From Cochliopodium minus (taxonomy: Eukaryota > Discosea > Himatismenida > Cochliopodiidae): a stretch of 21,152 nucleotides of DNA. The stretch is from assembly GCA_024220525.1 (NCBI GenBank), contig JAMYWO010000215.1, positions 7,969 to 29,120 of the forward strand. Direction: 5' to 3'. The translations under genes were made by a program, and so were the position numbers. Shown piece after piece: positions 2,271 to 15,745 of this stretch. The notes under the pieces are model-generated. The model did no database searches. It was not told where the DNA came from and saw only the letters and a list, made by a program, of their open reading frames with translations. Each line of letters starts with the position of its first letter. Position 1 is the stretch's first letter.

Positions 2271-2289
2271 AAAGAAGATTTTTTCTGAG

Positions 2290-2390
2290 TTTTGAAATTT
2301 CTATTATTTTATTTAGTCAATCTTTTAACTTTCTTTATTTTTTGAAAGAATTAAATCAAAAGATTTCATATTTTTAAAAACTTTTCAAAA
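2290..2390 (-). promoter_or_regulatory. SECIS-like element in the 3' UTR of the PRXL2-like gene
   Basis: Read on the minus strand. AUGA (2369-2366) is followed by AUCUUUU, which pairs perfectly with AAAAGAU, and the opposite strand then continues with GA (2318-2317). This gives the tandem G.A/A.G core of a eukaryotic SECIS. The helix extends by three wobble or Watson-Crick pairs (GAU/GUU) to about 10 bp. Above it, an unpaired AA lies about 13 nt after AUGA, followed by a mini-stem UUCUUU/AAAGAA, as in form 2 SECIS elements. An outer stem UUUUGAAA/UUUCAAAA (8 bp) brackets the core; the helix directly below the quartet is weak. An AATAAA-like signal follows the core. Chance hairpins are common in DNA this AT-rich, but the ordered match of all core parts 65 nt after the stop of a gene with a TGA at its active site is hard to dismiss. 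Confidence 0.62.
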
Positions 2391-2434
2391 TTTAAAACTT
2401 AAAAAAAAAATTTAAACATATCAAAGATCATTGA

Positions 2435-3499
2435 TTACAAAAAAAAGAGATAGAAGAGGAAAATGAGGAGAAGGACGAAAGAATAAAAGAAAATGCGTTC
2501 AATCAACTGAAGGGATCTCTTGATTTTGGAATGAGAAAGAAATTGATCAACAGCAGAGTTGTAATTGAGATCAATCTTGTTCTTTTTGTTTTTTATGCTG
2601 GTATTATCCTCTTGGATGAGGGAGAGGACATCCAAACTCGCAAAATCAACTGGATTTTCATCTAGATGGTAATAGAGGCAGTTGGATCCTTCCATTATCA
2701 AGGTTGCTCCCTGTATCCAGGAATCTCCTACCAATTTCGAATTGCTTATTGCGAGAAATAAAGCTATTTTGAGGATAGAAGACAATTGATTTCTGAATTT
2801 GGTGATTGATGTTGGTATGAACGAGAAAATCGACCTATTTTTGAGATTTACAGAAAAATTATATGAATTTGTTTCTATAATAAAAATTATCAAATTAAGA
2901 TTGATCATATTGAGATATATCATCCATCCATCCATCAAATTTACATCTATCCATTCCGTAATCAAAATAAATAATTTAAGTGTTTATCAATCATTTCATT
3001 TAAAAAAATATATTTCTTTATTTCCTTAAATAGGGTATGTGATTCAAATTATTTTTCCTAATGTTATTTATTATGATTTTATCTTTAATTTTACCTGAAG
3101 ATTCCTCTTTTAGTGTTTATAGCTTTATATGTCAACAATTTTTCGTCACAGTATAATTCAGGAAGGATTTCGGAAGGGAACGATTCAATGAATTTTCCTA
3201 TCTGCTCCAGATTAGAAGATGTGATGAAGCATACTTTGATATTTCTCTCTATTAAAAGAGGATATATTTTATTATATGCTTCCAATTGTATATTAAGCAC
3301 TAATCAAGCACAATTTCGAGACCATACTAAAATTGTTTTTTGGCTAATTGAATATTGGTGTTAAATAAATTAACAATTTTGATATAATGAGCATTTACTC
3401 TTTATATAAATCTGATAATTTGAAGATATTTCCATCACTTTTCATAATTTTTAGATCTTGAATTCTTTCATCAACAGTATTTTGTTCTTTCTCTTTCAT
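2435..3499 (-). CDS. Predicted selenoprotein: PRXL2/AAED1 (SelU-like) thioredoxin-fold protein with C-terminal membrane tail
   Basis: Exons in coding order: 3499-3399, 3343-3095, 2834-2435; phases match and give 250 codons including the stop. The family is AhpC/TSA-like thioredoxin-fold oxidoreductases (PRXL2/FAM213/AAED1). Family marks: KLSDLYKDQKTILVWSRN, then CDEKLLTYKAINTKRG (compare YVDPEREIYKRLGMKRG), then GDSWIQGATLIM and YYHLDENPVDFASLD (compare HRDRNRLDHKPI). Codon 47 is TGA (3306-3304). Without gaps, VWSRNCA-TGA-LVL aligns to human AAED1 VFVRHFLCYTC, putting the TGA on the first Cys of CxxC; the second Cys is Leu here. Splicing out the TGA would need a 28-nt intron and would break frame. 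A SECIS-like hairpin lies about 65 nt past the stop. The last 19 residues are hydrophobic (FVLLLIFLFYLFF), suggesting a tail anchor. If TGA is a true stop, the gene is broken. The homology is firm; Sec decoding is inferred. Confidence 0.8.
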
Positions 3500-3618: not shown

Positions 3619-5158
3619 TTATTCATTAAAAAATTCTATTTCACAAACAGTATCCCCATAAAAAAGATCAATAACAAAAACATAATCAATTTGATCACTT
3701 CTATCAAAAGGCTTCTCTATTTGCTTCATTCCATTCAAATTGCAAATGAACAATTTTCTCTCAAAATCTATTTTGAAAACAAACACATTTTCATAATCTG
3801 TGCATGTTCCCCAATCTGTATTCCGTTCTCCTGTTTTTTAGAATAAAAAAAAAAATTTAAATAATTTATAAATAAAAATAAGTAGCAAATAAAATAAAAA
3901 TCTTATAAAAAATTTTGAATAAATCTATAATTAAAAAAAAAATAAATAAAAAAACAAAAATAATATTAAAAAAAAAAAAATTAAAAAAACAATATAAACG
4001 AAAAATAAAAATAAAAAATGACAAGAATAATAAAATTTAAAATTTTGGTAGAGAAATTGTTTTATTAAAAATGAAAAAAATTTCAAAAAAAATAAAATGA
4101 AATAAGATACAATTTATTAAAATTAAAAAATCAATGAAATAAAATTTAATAAAAAATAAAATAAATAAAATACAATTTTTTAAATAATAAAAAATAAAAT
4201 ACAATTTATAAAATTAATTTAGTATTTTTTTTTTTACCATATCCTCCTTCATCATATCCAGAAATGTTTCCAAATCTGGTATCAATGACCCTTCCTTTGG
4301 TATTTTTGTGACAAAGAAAACCATTCGCAAAAAAATTTTCTTCGAGTGCTCCGAAGCCGAAATACTTGTCCCACGATGGAAAATGAGTCACTTTCAACTT
4401 GAATCCCTTCACTCCTCTTGGGTTGAGTTTCTTCGTAAAGATAAAAATATCTTGCAGACCATCTATTAATTAAAATAAAAAAATTTAAATTATATTATAT
4501 AAAAAGAATTGATTTTGATTTGAAAAATTTTGATGATCATCAGATCTTATAAAATTTTAAATTTAAAATTCAATTTTAAATTTAATTTTTATTAAAATCA
4601 TAATTTTTAATTTTAAAAAAATTTTTTTTGCCCAAAGCTTTGACTATGAACTTTCTTCTTTTTCTTGTGATTGAGATTTTCTTCGTATCATAGGTTTTGA
4701 ATGGATTATTGTATTTATAATGAAGATAAATACGTCCATATCTCTTTTCATATTCACTCAATTCAATATTGAAAAGATCCCCTTCGATTTCTTGCTCATT
4801 TATTTCTCCCACTTCATCCATATAAAATCTCTTCCAAATCAGATCAGAATATTTGAGTTCCCCATTGAAATAAAGGTTGAAGAAAAATTTATTGAGCGAA
4901 GAAACTTCCAAATTTTCTTTTAAATCCAAATACTCAAAGATCTTAAACAATATCACTTTTGGTAATTTCTCAAATGAACAAGTGGCAGAGATATCTGTTG
5001 TGAAAAGATTTTGGAATACTTCATTTTTCTTCTTTTCTTCTTCTTCCTCTCTTCTCTTTAATTTTTCTTTTTCAATTTCTTTGGTATCAACATTTGTATT
5101 TTTTCTATTGTTTTGATCTCCATTTTTTCGACTTTGAATTCCCCATTTATAAACTCCA
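3619..5158 (-). CDS. F-box protein, copy A (start codon not located)
   Basis: Coding order: exon 1 from about 5158 to 4632, exon 2 4462-4238, exon 3 3830-3619 (stop TAA). Exon 1 encodes a charged Lys/Glu-rich stretch and then an F-box (FEKLPKVILFKIFEYLDLKE, with SDLIWKRFYMDE), the SKP1-binding module of SCF ubiquitin ligases. Exons 2 and 3 encode a conserved C-terminal region (VTHFPSWDKYFGFG, RFGNISGYDEGGYGERNTDW, KIDFERKLFICNLNGM) that I do not recognise with certainty; it may be the substrate-binding half. Phase requires exon 1 to end TTG-G before GCAAAA, so intron 1 is an inferred GC-AG intron (4631-4463). The 407-bp intron 3831-4237 is A/T-rich filler. The exon-1 frame is open up to an in-frame TAA near 5165, but no in-frame ATG precedes the F-box. 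An upstream exon near 5270 is possible, or the 5' end is lost. The next gene starts 119 bp downstream. Confidence 0.7.
4647..5011. repeat. Near-identical tract shared with 6212-6576
   Basis: By eye this tract, covering the F-box coding part of copy A, matches 6212-6576 in copy B over roughly 360 bp with only one or two differences, near its low-coordinate end. On both sides identity falls sharply: small deletions on the intron/exon-2 side and unrelated Lys-rich leader sequence on the other. This block pattern suggests recent gene conversion or a recent partial duplication. Confidence 0.8.
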
Positions 5159-5284: not shown

Positions 5285-6720
5285 AATTCAATTTCAAACA
5301 GTATCCTCATAAAAGATCAATAACAAAACATAATCAATTTGATCACTTCTATCAAAGGCTTCTATTTGCTTCATTCAAATTGCAAATGAACAATTTTCTG
5401 AAATCTATTTTGAAAACAAACACATTTCATAATCTGTGCATGTTCAATCTGTATTCTGAGCTCCTGTTTAGAATAAAAATTTGGAAATAATAAAAAATAA
5501 AAAAAAAAATTAAAAAAAATAAAAATAAATTTAAAAATATTAAAATAAAAGAAAATAAAATAAAAATCAACAAAAATAAAAAAAAATATAATATAAAAAT
5601 TCAAAACATAAATCACACAAACATAAAAATAATTAAAATAAAAAAATAATAAAAATAAAAATGACAAGAATAATAAAATTTAAAATTTTAATAGAAAATT
5701 GTTTTATTAATAATAAAAATATTTCAAAAAAATAAAAACAAAAACAAATTTATTAAAAATAAAATATCAATAAAATACAATTTTTAAATAATAAAAATAA
5801 AAAAATTTATAAAATTAATTTAGTATTTTTTTTTACCATATCCTCCTTCATCATATCCAGAAATGTTTCAATCTGGTATCAATGACCCTTCCTTTGGTAT
5901 TTTTGTGACATAGAAAACCATTTGCAACAAAACTATCTTCGAGGCTCCTGAAACCAAATACTTGTCCCACGATGGAAAATGAGTCACTCAACTTGAATCC
6001 TTCACTCCTCTTGCAAGTTTCTTTGTAAAAACAAAATATCTTGAATACGTTCTAATATTTTTAAAAAAATTTAAATTATTTTTATAAAAGATTGGTTTTG
6101 ATTTGAAAAATTTGATGATCAGATCTATAAAATTTAAATTTAAATTCAATTTAAATTTAATTTTTATTAAAATTATTTTTAATTTTAATAAAATTTTTTT
6201 AAAGCTTTGATATGAACTTTCTTCCTTTTCTTGTGATTGAGATTTTCTTCGTATCATAGGTTTTGAATGGATTATTGTATTTATAATGAAGATAAATACG
6301 TCCATATCTCTTTTCATATTCACTCAATTCAATATTGAAAAGATCCCCTTCGATTTCTTGCTCATTTATTTCTCCCACTTCATCCATATAAAATCTCTTC
6401 CAAATCAGATCAGAATATTTGAGTTCCCCATTGAAATAAAGGTTGAAGAAAAATTTATTGAGCGAAGAAACTTCCAAATTTTCTTTTAAATCCAAATACT
6501 CAAAGATCTTAAACAATATCACTTTTGGTAATTTCTCAAATGAACAAGTGGCAGAGATATCTGTTGTGAAAAGATTTTCTATTTCTTCATTTTTCTTCTT
6601 CTTTGATTTTATTGAATTTTCTCGATTTTCATTTCTGCCAACTTTTTTTATATCACCTTCCCTCAAATCCCATTTCCTCTTTTTTTCTTTAGATTTATCT
6701 TTATTATCATTTTCTAGCAT
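5285..6720 (-). pseudogene. F-box gene copy B: intact F-box exon, decayed downstream exons
   Basis: This is a tandem paralog of the gene at 3619-5158. Its first exon (start ATG at 6720, chosen because it is the first in-frame ATG, MLENDNKDKSKEK) reads through a Lys-rich leader and the same F-box to a stop at 6199. The exon-2-like stretch (5834-6050) and exon-3-like stretch (5285-5463) match copy A closely but carry many deletions of 1 to 5 nt in short repeats, which shift the frame several times. The position corresponding to copy A's GC donor reads GCTTTAAAAAAA, so no splice donor is visible. The intron-like stretch 5473-5833 is A/T-rich and shorter than in copy A. From about 6212 to 6576 the two copies are almost identical. 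Copy B may make only a short F-box protein of about 170 residues, or be a dead gene. Confidence 0.7.
6212..6576. repeat. Near-identical tract shared with 4647-5011
   Basis: This is the second member of the direct repeat pair, about 1.56 kb apart and in the same orientation. It holds the F-box part of copy B, which keeps an open frame although the rest of that copy is decayed. Confidence 0.8.
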
Positions 6721-12196: not shown

Positions 12197-13523
12197 CTAT
12201 AATTTTGGCTTTTTAAGAAGAAGTTTCTCTTTCAAATATTCAACTCTTTCATTTCCAAAAAAGAGTTCATTGTCATTATCAACCAAAGTTGGAACACCAA
12301 AAACACCCAACTCACAAGCTTGCTCTTCTATTTTTTTCATTTCTAATTTTGCAGTAGGTAAATAATTTAAAAACTCTTCGAAATTTCCTCCACTTTTTTC
12401 AATTTCCTTTACAATATGAAAAATAAACGAAAATATTAAATAAATAATAAATAAATAAAAATAAAATAAACAATATAAATATAAATTATGAATAAAAAAT
12501 AAAAAATAATAATAATAATAATATAAATATAATTTAAAATTTTAAATTAAATGGAAGATTACATTTTTCATAGAAGTTTGGTCTTCAATGTCCAATTCCC
12601 TTTCAAAAAATTTTTTAAATACATTATTATGATACTCCAAAAATCCGTTTGGATGGTATTTTTGCAAATAAAGACACCCCGCCAATGAAAGAGTAGAATC
12701 AAAAGCTTTTTTAAATATAAAGTTTTACAAAAAAAAATAAAAATAAAATAAAAATAAAATAAAAAAAAAATAAAAAAAAATGAAAAATAAAAAATAAAAT
12801 AAAAAAATAAAAATAAAAATAAAAAATAAAAATAAAATAAAAAATAAAAAAAATAAATTTGATAAGAAAAAAAAAGAAATAAAAATAAAAATGAAAATAA
12901 AAAAATTAAAAAAAAAAAATGAAAAATAAATAAAATAAATTTGATAAATAAAATAAATAAAATAATAAATTAAAAAAATTAAAAAAAATAAAGAAAAAAA
13001 ATATATCAATCACCTTTCTTTGGTCCATATATTTTAATGTTTTCTCTTTTGTTTGCTTGTCTTCTTGCATCCATGTAAGCATACCTATTTAAAGATTGAA
13101 TGATTTAATTTAAAAGTTTATTGTGTTTAGAATCAGGTTTTCTTAACTTCACTTTGTTCCACTGCCATTTGTTCCTTTTTTCTGGAAGTCCTGTAATTCA
13201 TAATAAATTTAAATTGATCTCTTAATTTTTGTTTGGGCAAGTTTACCGAAAAATCTTTTTTTGATTAATTTCGAATTATTATTCAAATTTAATTTAATTT
13301 TTAATTTCTATTTTTTTACTCTTCCATTTTGAAGCAGAATGGAATCCATCTTTTAAAAAAATTAATGATTTTAAATTTGGGATTATTTATTATTCTCATT
13401 AAAAATAAGAATTCTCTTTTACTCAGCCTGAATTCCCAATTCTTTCTCAAGTGAATAGATAGAATCCTTAATCAAGTAAGCGGCTGGTGATTTATAATCA
13501 AAAAAAACTCTTATTTTATTCAT
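12197..13523 (-). CDS. DsbA-family / 2-hydroxychromene-2-carboxylate isomerase-like protein
   Basis: Exons in coding order: 13523-13423, 13349-13320, 13254-13247 (8 nt), 13190-13163, 13084-13014, 12705-12563, 12406-12197 (stop TAG); 196 residues. The family is the thioredoxin-fold group of GST-kappa and HCCA isomerases. Seen: VFFDYKSPAAYL (catalytic-type Ser12 in the SPxxYL motif, no CxxC), EWIPFCF, YAYMDARRQANKR, KKAFDSTLSLAG, FFERELDIED, GVFGVPTLVDNDNELFFGNE. These follow the order of bacterial relatives (WLPY..., KYMYMDARR..., RELDIED, GVFGVPTF). The 8-nt microexon supplies EFFG, where relatives have SFLG or similar, and is the only way I found to keep frame between exons 2 and 4. The 308-bp intron 12706-13013 is A-rich simple sequence. 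The substrate is unknown; a glutathione or thiol-linked role is likely. Confidence 0.85.
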
Positions 13524-14076: not shown

Positions 14077-14889
14077 TTATTTTAATTGATTTTTGATAAT
14101 AATCCTAGAAAAATCAGTTCTTCCACTAACAAATGTTTTTCTTCTCAATTTAAATCTATCTACAACATCATCACCTTTTTCTATTCTTATATATACACCC
14201 TCAGAAATTTCATTGGAACTGAATTTAGAAGGGAGAATGAGATCCTTCAATTTATCTGGTTGTAGAAAAGATTAAATAAAAAATAATTTGGATGGTTTAA
14301 CCAAAAAACAAAAACCTTTTAATTGATTTGAAGCACAAGATCCGCTCCATAATAAAGGAACATGAGTGAATTTGTCATTTAATTTATCTTTTAGAAATTG
14401 AAAGCTTTTCCATTTTTGAGTTTTCTTATTTAAAAGATCAAATGCCAAGAAAAAATCGGGAAGTTGATCATATTTGACTGCATGTAAACAATATAACCAT
14501 TCTCCAAAAATAACATACTCATCTCCCAATATTTCCCATAATTCTTCTATATTTGACATTACCCATTTTCTAAATTGCTCATATTGTTCATGTTCTCCCT
14601 TTTGTTCAATCAATCCAGATCTTTTTTGTATTATCGGATTATATTTGTTATCTTCATTTAAAAAATGCATACTAACATTCGCTCCATCTACTTTTTCTTG
14701 TATTACTATTGAGAATTCATTATCTAATTTCAAATTTGAAAAATTTATGATTTCATCGTCATCCACAACACTACTCCCTTCCAAATGAGGAGTTTTTGGA
14801 AATTTATAAAAATTATTTTCTTTTGTGTTATTTTTTCCCTTCTTTTCATCAATTTCTTTATTTGGTATATTTTTTGATCCTTTCTTCAT
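14077..14889 (-). CDS. ATP-dependent RNA ligase (Rnl2-like nucleotidyltransferase)
   Basis: Exons 14889-14316 and 14255-14077 give 250 residues. RNA ligases of this covalent nucleotidyltransferase family seal RNA nicks through a ligase-AMP intermediate. Motif I is EKVDGAN (Lys66, the AMP acceptor), motif III is FGEWLYC (about 128-134), motif IIIa is FFLAFDLLN (about 146-154), motif IV is EGVYIRIE (210-217), and motif V lies in VVDRFKLRRKTFV (222-234). About 35 Lys/Asn-rich residues precede the domain and might be a targeting or RNA-binding leader. Nothing follows motif V except about 15 residues, so it has little beyond the nucleotidyltransferase core. The first ATG was taken as start; the divergent promoter region with the LON gene follows. 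Possible roles are RNA repair or editing; which RNA it acts on cannot be told. Confidence 0.9.
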
Positions 14890-15745
14890 TTTTTAATTAC
14901 AAACTCTTTTTTTTTTTATTTTTCATTTGTTTTTCTTGAATGTCAAACTTTTAATCAATAAAAGTAATTAAAAATGTTCATAAAGTTAAATGTTCCTTTT
15001 AGAACTTAATTTTTTAAAGATTCAAGAACACCTTTACATTTATTTGAAAAACAAAAAGTCACCCATGACAAAATCCTTTCTGGGAACAATAGTTAAATAC
15101 AAATGTCTTTGAGCAAAGATTATTGACGATAATAAGAAACAAAAATATAAAGCGAAGGAATGTTGAAAACCTCTTAATTTCAATTCTTAGAAATTTCCAA
15201 TTTAAAAATGTTTTATTTCTTAATTGAGAAAATAAAGGTCACAAATTGTAATTAAATTCATTGTTATGATGAAAAATTTGAAAAGATTATGAAAATTGAT
15301 ATTTTATATTTTTTAAAGGATGTGTTATTTTTGTTCAATCTTTTCAAAAAGAGATTTAATTTGAATAAACTTGGTTGATGATTTTGGGATTTGGAATGGA
15401 CTTCTCAAATTTTTTTATTTTTTTATTGGAAGTATCCGGTGTGGTTGAAAATGGAGTTAAAAATTGAACAAAAGGATTGATATTTAAATACAAAAACCCT
15501 AATTACTCCCCAAATTATTAGAATGAAAAAGAAAACAACAAAAATTGCCCAATTTTTTTAACATTTATAGTATAAATATAAAATAAAAAAAAAATCACTC
15601 TTATTTTTTATTTCCTTTTCTTTTATCTTTTTAAAAAGATTATTATCAATATTTTTTAAAGGTTTCAACCAAATTAATCCATTTATTTGAAATATCATTC
15701 AAACTAATCCTCAATTTTTTTATAGACAAAGTGGAAGTTCTCTAT
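14890..15745. other. Divergent intergenic region between RNA ligase and LON
   Basis: The 856 bp hold no reading frame I can support. It should contain both promoters and the LON 5' UTR. A TATA-like run (TATAGTATAAATATAAAATA) lies near 15568, about 180 bp before the LON start codon. The stretch 15040-15180 is less A/T-biased than neighbouring introns, with CCCATGACAAA and TTCTGGGAAC forming a short stem. I could not match it to a tRNA, snRNA or SRP RNA. Confidence 0.5.

What the first reader, a model, noticed from the sequence alone, without database searches (positions are those of the whole stretch)
3304..3306. In-frame TGA at the active-site cysteine of a PRXL2/AAED1-like protein: candidate selenocysteine
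Seen: after exons 1 and 2 are joined, codon 47 is TGA, and both sides stay in the same family-matching frame. Established: in PRXL2/SelU-family proteins Cys and Sec interchange at the redox motif, and AAED1 has CxxC there. The ungapped match VFVRHFLC / VWSRNCA-TGA puts TGA on the first Cys. TGA is a normal stop elsewhere in the window (LON), so the whole code is not reassigned. A 28-nt intron removing it would break frame. Inferred: Sec insertion; the resolving Cys is absent (Leu), so a one-selenol mechanism is implied.
Basis: partly seen in the sequence, partly recalled or inferred. Interest (0 to 1): 0.93.

Follow-up and report, generated by a model that had tools for sequence, protein, structure and literature searches.

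The report
Selenocysteine-containing PRXL2/SelU-like redox protein
An AT-rich single-celled eukaryote appears to use the stop codon TGA to place the rare amino acid selenocysteine at the active site of a small, probably membrane-anchored antioxidant-type protein, a new member of a known selenoprotein family.

Summary
Confirmed. The minus-strand gene 3499-2435 has three exons, GT-AG introns and one in-frame TGA (3306-3304, codon 47 of 249). Profile PF00578 expects the redox cysteine there: 27.6 bits with Cys, 21.4-23.7 with Ser, Ala, Trp or Arg.

The genome has tRNA-Sec (anticodon TCA), SepSecS, SelD (a Cys form) and eEFSec. SBP2 was not found, by a weak search.

65 nt after the stop codon lies a near-ideal type II SECIS (minus 2369-2316): AUGA, 13 unbroken pairs, AA, helix III, GA. 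It is the only zero-mismatch match to my SECIS pattern in the window, both strands.

The same genome has other genes with TGA at known Sec positions: two SelW paralogues (a third, in tandem, has Cys) and three glutathione peroxidases. All five have SECIS-like elements, some no stronger than chance.

So this is a selenoprotein gene of the PRXL2/SelU/SelL-like group, whose Sec forms are known in animals and algae. AAED1 subtype and chemistry are unproven. New member of a known kind.

The parts
3399..3499 (-). Exon 1 (ATG at 3499-3497; MKEKEQNTVDERIQDLKIMKSDGNIFKLSDLYK..)
3344..3398 (-). Intron 1, 55 nt, GT..AG
   Evidence: predicted, no transcript data
3095..3343 (-). Exon 2 (..QKTILVWSRNCA-U-LVLNIQLEAYNK...KRGIF..)
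   Evidence: PF00578 match over residues 10-88
3304..3306 (-). In-frame TGA, codon 47, read as selenocysteine
   Evidence: Cys favoured at this column by 3.9-6.2 bits over S, A, R, W
3310..3312 (-). Codon for Cys45, two residues before Sec (CxU); candidate resolving thiol
   Evidence: residue list, frame; role inferred
2835..3094 (-). Intron 2, 260 nt, GT..AG
   Evidence: predicted, no transcript data
2435..2834 (-). Exon 3 (..GDSWIQGATLIMEGSNCLYYHLDENP..) with stop TAA at 2437-2435
   Evidence: PF13911 match over residues 62-177 spans exons 2 and 3
2438..2494 (-). C-terminal hydrophobic segment, residues 231-249 (IFFYSFVLLLIFLFYLFFL), putative tail anchor
   Evidence: mean hydropathy 2.75 over 19 residues; membrane insertion not tested
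2316..2369 (-). SECIS element, type II, 65 nt after the stop codon
2366..2369 (-). SECIS core, 5' side, AUGA
   Evidence: sequence; pattern
2353..2365 (-). SECIS helix II 5' strand, 13 nt, paired to 2331-2319 without mismatch (2 G-U pairs)
2351..2352 (-). SECIS apical AA
2332..2349 (-). SECIS helix III, 5 bp with 8-nt loop
2316..2331 (-). SECIS helix II 3' strand and core 3' side GA(C)

Best explanation
A functional selenoprotein gene. The UGA at codon 47 is decoded as selenocysteine by tRNA-Sec and eEFSec, directed by a type II SECIS in the 3'UTR (supported by sequence and predicted structure; not shown by experiment). The product is a thioredoxin-fold PRXL2/SelU/SelL-like redox protein with Sec at the position of the first Cys of the CxxC motif. 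Inferred: the selenolate of U47 attacks a peroxide or disulfide, and the oxidised selenium is resolved by neighbouring Cys45 (CxU) or by an external thiol, because the usual +3 Cys is Leu. A hydrophobic C-terminal tail probably anchors the enzyme in a membrane with the catalytic domain facing the cytosol. The confidence given is for Sec decoding in this family; I put the CxU chemistry and tail anchor at about 0.4 together.
For: Gene intact apart from one TGA. That TGA falls on the profile's Cys column: 27.6 bits for C against 23.7 S, 22.9 A, 21.5 R, 21.4 W; adding C at +3 gives 34.7, so the register is CxxC. tRNA-Sec 66.4 bits (gathering score 47), anticodon TCA. SepSecS: five exon matches over positions 5-388 of 389. 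SelD 217.5 bits. eEFSec fragment matches solved eEFSec at 101.4 bits, against 50.9 for archaeal SelB and 39.8 for the best EF-Tu. SECIS: only zero-mismatch hit in the window, both strands; 1 of 4000 shuffles of the 300-nt 3' region has one; 2 of 1500 shuffles of the 500-nt region reach its graded score, and no other of 312 real tiles does. Other TGA genes at known Sec positions: SelW1 and SelW2 (SelW3 has Cys), and three GPx.
Against: No transcript, ribosome or peptide data; 21 GT-AG pairs could skip the TGA in an open frame, 12 of them unscored. A covariance model from the two SelW SECIS places the element exactly but weakly (15.7 bits, E 0.17, rank 5 of 35 in the window). Rfam reports no SECIS family here. 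Other tiles scored nearly as high in the SECIS scan (21.6, 20.2). SBP2 was not recognised among 6 L7Ae matches, though that search missed RPL30 too; PSTK was not tested. No homologue was found in the bacterial/archaeal, viral and plasmid collections, by searches with limited reach, so codon 47 could not be compared across species. The membrane tail and CxU chemistry are inferred.
Confidence: 0.95

Rival explanations
1. Splicing removes the TGA in frame, by a very short intron (12 or 33 nt) or a longer intron 1 (for example donor 3398 to acceptor 3245, 154 nt), and the protein has no Sec.
For: 21 GT-AG pairs skip the TGA and leave an open frame, one of those with intron 1's own donor being only 154 nt.
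Against: Of 9 scored, none reaches PF00578's cut-off of 26 bits: best 18.7 (12 nt), 16.1 and 12.8 in two more, not reported in the other six, against 27.6 for the TGA-retaining form with Cys. PF13911 on this N-terminal stretch barely changes for seven of the nine (19.1-20.9 against 18.9), falls to 16.2 in one and is lost in one. All of them remove the redox position and leave the SECIS unexplained.
Confidence: 0.02
2. A pseudogene, or a sequencing error in a Cys codon.
For: A Cys codon is one base from TGA; a diverged tandem copy of a neighbouring gene shows that decayed copies, or poorly polished sequence, occur nearby.
Against: No other stop in 249 codons and usable splice sites. 27 of 250 codons are one step from TGA, yet the stop is on the catalytic column. 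An error would not create a SECIS in the 3'UTR.
Confidence: 0.02
3. TGA is a true stop giving a 46-residue peptide.
For: TGA ends LON in this window.
Against: Family similarity continues to residue 177, 130 residues after the TGA, and a SECIS lies 674 nt downstream in the spliced message.
Confidence: 0.01

Closest known systems
Selenoprotein U family (SelU1/C10orf58, SelU2/C9orf21, SelU3), PRX-like2
   Same: PRX-like fold (PF13911 met). Passages of PMC3473315 say Sec forms of SelU1, SelU2 and SelU3 exist in marine invertebrates; passages of PMC2375036 list SelU selenoproteins in Ostreococcus and Thalassiosira. That Sec sits on the first Cys of the motif there, and that C9orf21 is AAED1/PRXL2C, is recalled.
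   Different: Leu at +3 in place of Cys, an extra Cys at -2, and a C-terminal hydrophobic tail. Whether other SelU proteins share these was not checked: no SelU alignment was seen.
SelL-related redox proteins (NCBIfam NF040769)
   Same: Only NCBIfam match, spanning residues 13-184.
   Different: 35.2 bits against a cut-off of 120. SelL has two Sec residues (passage of PMC3473315); this protein has one in-frame TGA.
Sep15-type CxU selenoproteins
   Same: Cys two residues before Sec, a geometry recalled for Sep15.
   Different: Another protein family (recalled); resemblance of the motif only.
Eukaryotic type II SECIS elements
   Same: AUGA, helix II of 13 pairs, AA, helix III, GA; the class features are recalled, and AUGA_AA as the common form in invertebrates and vertebrates is in a passage of PMC3473315.
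   Different: Extremely AT-rich: a single G-C pair in helix II (sequence).

Membership tests
Eukaryotic selenoprotein gene | In-frame UGA at a position occupied by Cys in homologues | tested here: met
   Profile substitution scan; profiles only, no aligned orthologues
Eukaryotic selenoprotein gene | SECIS in the 3'UTR on the sense strand | tested here: met
   weak by the SelW-trained model and unseen by Rfam
Eukaryotic selenoprotein gene | Genome encodes tRNA-Sec, SepSecS, SelD, eEFSec | tested here: met
Eukaryotic selenoprotein gene | Genome encodes SBP2 | tested here: inconclusive
   6 L7Ae matches, none recognised as SBP2; the exon-wise search also missed RPL30
Eukaryotic selenoprotein gene | Genome encodes PSTK | not tested
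Eukaryotic selenoprotein gene | Sec incorporated in the protein | not testable with these tools
   needs mass spectrometry or 75Se labelling
PRXL2 / SelU (AhpC-TSA_2, PF13911) | Passes Pfam gathering cut-off | tested here: met
   37.6 bits, cut-off 27
PRXL2 / SelU (AhpC-TSA_2, PF13911) | CxxC or UxxC redox motif (recalled as typical; not every member need have it) | tested here: not met
   U47 with Leu50; only the first redox position is kept. I therefore say PRXL2/SelU-like, not SelU
AAED1 / PRXL2C (SelU2) subfamily | Groups with PRXL2C against PRXL2A and PRXL2B | not testable with these tools
   no collection of eukaryotic proteins at hand; the match to AAED1 is recalled
SelL-related redox protein (NF040769) | Passes curated cut-off of 120 bits | tested here: not met
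   35.2 bits

The most novel reading that the evidence does not exclude
A membrane-tethered SelU-like selenoenzyme whose redox partner has moved from the usual +3 Cys to a Cys at -2 (CxU). That would be a re-wired active site, in a lineage that also tolerates loss of the partner Cys in a Sec-containing SelW paralogue (GTSU beside CTRU and CLSC).
Probability: 0.4. Interest if true: 0.55.

Novelty: new member of a known kind. Interest (0 to 1): 0.5.

Why it matters
It indicates that a deeply AT-rich protist keeps a selenocysteine system with at least six candidate selenoprotein genes: this one, two SelW and three GPx. Its SECIS is built almost wholly of A-U pairs and is missed by Rfam. A standard annotation pipeline would probably truncate the gene or splice around the TGA. 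The SelW array (Sec, Sec, Cys side by side) makes Sec-to-Cys exchange testable within one genome.

Tried and rejected
I considered Anaeramoeba because passages of PMC11550330 describe very AT-rich genomes, but nothing here tests it; its main text holds no word beginning 'selen'. PF13911 scanned over the raw genome found nothing at E 0.001, presumably because introns split the domain. Rfam found no SECIS. A pooled covariance model of all SECIS was dropped because MAFFT did not align the helices. Searches for relatives in plasmids, genome contigs and viral contigs found none. Sep15/SelM-like genes: two read as Cys forms (TKPC, CKGC), the motif of a third was not resolved. A fourth Rdx match (C25, L023) was not resolved. 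I first read minus-strand loci L023 and L048-L050 in the wrong orientation and redid L023, L048, L049 and L051.

Full report
OBSERVATION. On the minus strand a three-exon gene runs from ATG 3499 to TAA 2435. Exons are 3499-3399, 3343-3095 and 2834-2435; introns are 55 and 260 nt, both GT..AG. The joined frame is 750 nt and has one internal stop, TGA at 3306-3304, codon 47. A genome search with the protein returns three matches, all from this gene, so it is single copy at that sensitivity.

WHAT THE CODON REPLACES. The joined protein passes Pfam's cut-off for PF13911 (37.6 bits, residues 62-177). It passes PF00578 only when residue 47 is Cys: 27.9 against 22.6 with X. In a substitution scan on the first 117 residues PF00578 gave 27.6 (Cys), 23.7 (Ser), 22.9 (Ala), 21.5 (Arg) and 21.4 (Trp). 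Cys at both 47 and 50 gave 34.7, showing that the profile's CxxC lies on 47 and 50. So TGA is on the first redox position, and the second is Leu. The only NCBIfam match is SelL-related redox protein, 35.2 bits, well below its cut-off of 120. A sequence search of the PDB gave one match, E 0.3, which I do not count as a relative.

MACHINERY. The genome (44.65 Mb, 598 contigs) holds a tRNA-Sec at C394, 66.4 bits against a gathering score of 47, read by ARAGORN as SeC with anticodon TCA. A second match also passes the gathering score (51.3 bits). Of the eight fetched of 16 matches, ARAGORN reads one as SeC, four as Ser (the 51.3-bit one among them), two as Gly and one as no tRNA. SepSecS is present as five exon matches over profile positions 5-388 of 389. 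SelD is present at 217.5 bits, with KGCGCKVP, a Cys form. The selB model gave 18 matches, none over its cut-off. One weak set, at C511, is eEFSec: its fragment matches solved eEFSec at 101.4 bits, archaeal SelB at 50.9 and EF-Tu at 39.8 or less. SBP2 was not recognised among six L7Ae matches, which I read (by recall) as RPS12, NHP2, SNU13 and RPL7A; RPL30 was missed too, so this says little. PSTK was not tested.

SECIS. 65 nt after the stop codon lies AUGA, 13 unbroken base pairs (2 G-U), AA, a 5-bp helix III with 8-nt loop, and GAC (minus 2369-2316). The minimum-energy fold is exactly this (-11.6 kcal/mol, z -2.2, 2 of 200 shuffles fold as well). It is the only zero-mismatch match to my pattern (UGA, 11-14 pairs with at most 3 G-U, AA, loop of 8-29 nt, GA) in the window, both strands. 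Sixty whole-window shuffles gave a mean of 0.1 such matches, at most 2, and 1 of 4000 shuffles of the 300-nt 3' region had one. With a graded score allowing mismatches and bulges it scored 22.6; 2 of 1500 shuffles of the 500-nt region reached that (highest 25.8). Of 312 real 500-nt tiles, its own tile was the best; the next scored 21.6 and 20.2. 36 of the 312 came from L035, which is mostly withheld N, and elements cut by a tile edge are missed. Against it: a covariance model trained on the two SelW SECIS hits the right place, 2370-2308, but with only 15.7 bits, rank 5 of 35 matches in the window. Rfam reports no SECIS family (gathering, E up to 10 on 2150-2500).

OTHER SELENOPROTEIN GENES IN THE SAME GENOME. 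At C79 three SelW/MIEN1-like genes lie in tandem, with motifs GTS-TGA, CTR-TGA and CLSC. The second, with Cys for TGA, matches solved C17orf37 (E 1.7e-7) and SelW (E 0.0066). Both TGA genes have a similar SECIS in the 3' region. The SelW-trained model scores these 88 and 90.8 by construction, and its best hit after the Cys copy is 14.1 bits. Of six GPx-like genes examined (11 matches), three have TGA at the known Sec position (NVATN-TGA-GLT twice, NVASF-TGA-GRT), two have Cys and one has neither. My SECIS scan found elements in the 3' regions of these five TGA genes with scores 15.0, 18.2, 18.2, 18.2 and 20.2. The best hits after the four non-TGA genes were 15.0, 16.0, 14.2 and none at 12 or more, and in the GPx C492 region an unrelated hit scored higher (16.8) than the SECIS (15.0). 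The minimum-energy fold is not the SECIS fold for the GPx C17 element, and the C24 element folds no better than shuffles. The scan therefore does not prove the weaker ones alone; their shared AUGA..AA..UGA pattern and place support them. The window's element scored highest of the six.

ALTERNATIVES. 21 GT-AG pairs would skip the TGA and leave an open frame; 12 and 33 nt are the only ones under 60 nt, and one of 154 nt uses intron 1's donor. I scored 9 of the 21: PF00578 falls from 27.6 to 18.7 at best and is not reported in six; PF13911 on the same N-terminal stretch barely changes in seven (19.1-20.9 against 18.9), falls to 16.2 in one and vanishes in one. None explains the SECIS. TGA is an ordinary stop for LON in this window. 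A pseudogene or error needs a lone lesion on the catalytic codon and a SECIS by chance.

HOW IT PROBABLY WORKS. Shown by sequence: gene structure, position of TGA, SECIS, machinery. Inferred: Sec47 is the attacking residue. However Cys45 lies at -2 (the Cys residues are 45, 72, 99 and 169), so a selenenylsulfide within CxU is possible; an external thiol is the alternative. The last 19 residues are strongly hydrophobic (mean hydropathy 2.75) and follow a basic stretch, as in tail-anchored proteins; this is a prediction.

KNOWN OR NEW. Passages of PMC3473315 state that Sec forms of SelU1, SelU2 and SelU3 occur in marine invertebrates. Passages of PMC2375036 list SelU in two green algae and a diatom, and five selenoproteins, without SelU, in Dictyostelium. 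Passages of PMC3316567 place vertebrate Sec forms in SelU1. Only two of my ten paper searches bore on the unusual features: selenoprotein with tail-anchored and peroxiredoxin-like found no paper, and a search with CXXC found 19, of which 10 were listed and none opened for this. Searches for AAED1 with selenoprotein (no paper) and PRXL2 with selenocysteine (two papers, on ferroptosis by title) gave nothing on this. The library is partial, so I do not claim that these features are unreported. I call it a new member of a known kind. The host could not be named.

Noticed in passing
G000:C79:150200-151870 (L024, L025): Tandem SelW/MIEN1-like genes with Sec (GTSU), Sec (CTRU) and Cys (CLSC) forms; the first also lacks the partner Cys. 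SECIS in the 3' region of the two Sec copies.
   Followed up: yes
G000:C492:15788-15970, C17:2448-2609, C24:242208-242339: Three glutathione peroxidase genes with TGA at the Sec position; paralogues at C15 and C242 have Cys, C85 neither.
   Followed up: partly
window 4273-4944 and 5870-6510: Tandem copies of a gene with a weak F-box-like match (20.2 bits, below the cut-off of 24.3): 300 nt are identical (4645-4944 and 6211-6510), while the rest of the second copy differs by many small deletions, by eye. Recent duplication with decay, or a poorly polished stretch of assembly.
   Followed up: partly
window 12200-13523, minus: DsbA-like gene (PF01323, 30.5 bits, on its last exon); a likely first exon reads FFDYKSPAAYL, without Cys or TGA at the motif. 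That the two exons belong together is inferred.
   Followed up: partly
window 14275-14892, minus: RNA_ligase domain (PF09414, 80.5 bits, cut-off 27).
   Followed up: no
window 2271-2434: The VPS4-like gene (+) and the selenoprotein gene (-) converge with 164 nt between their stop codons; the SECIS lies inside this shared 3' region.
   Followed up: no
G000:C19:226926-227723 (L014): SelD is a Cys form (KGCGCKVP), not a selenoprotein itself.
   Followed up: partly
G000:C25:32497-32688, minus (L023): A further Rdx-family (SelW/SelT-like) match whose redox motif exon was not resolved.
   Followed up: partly
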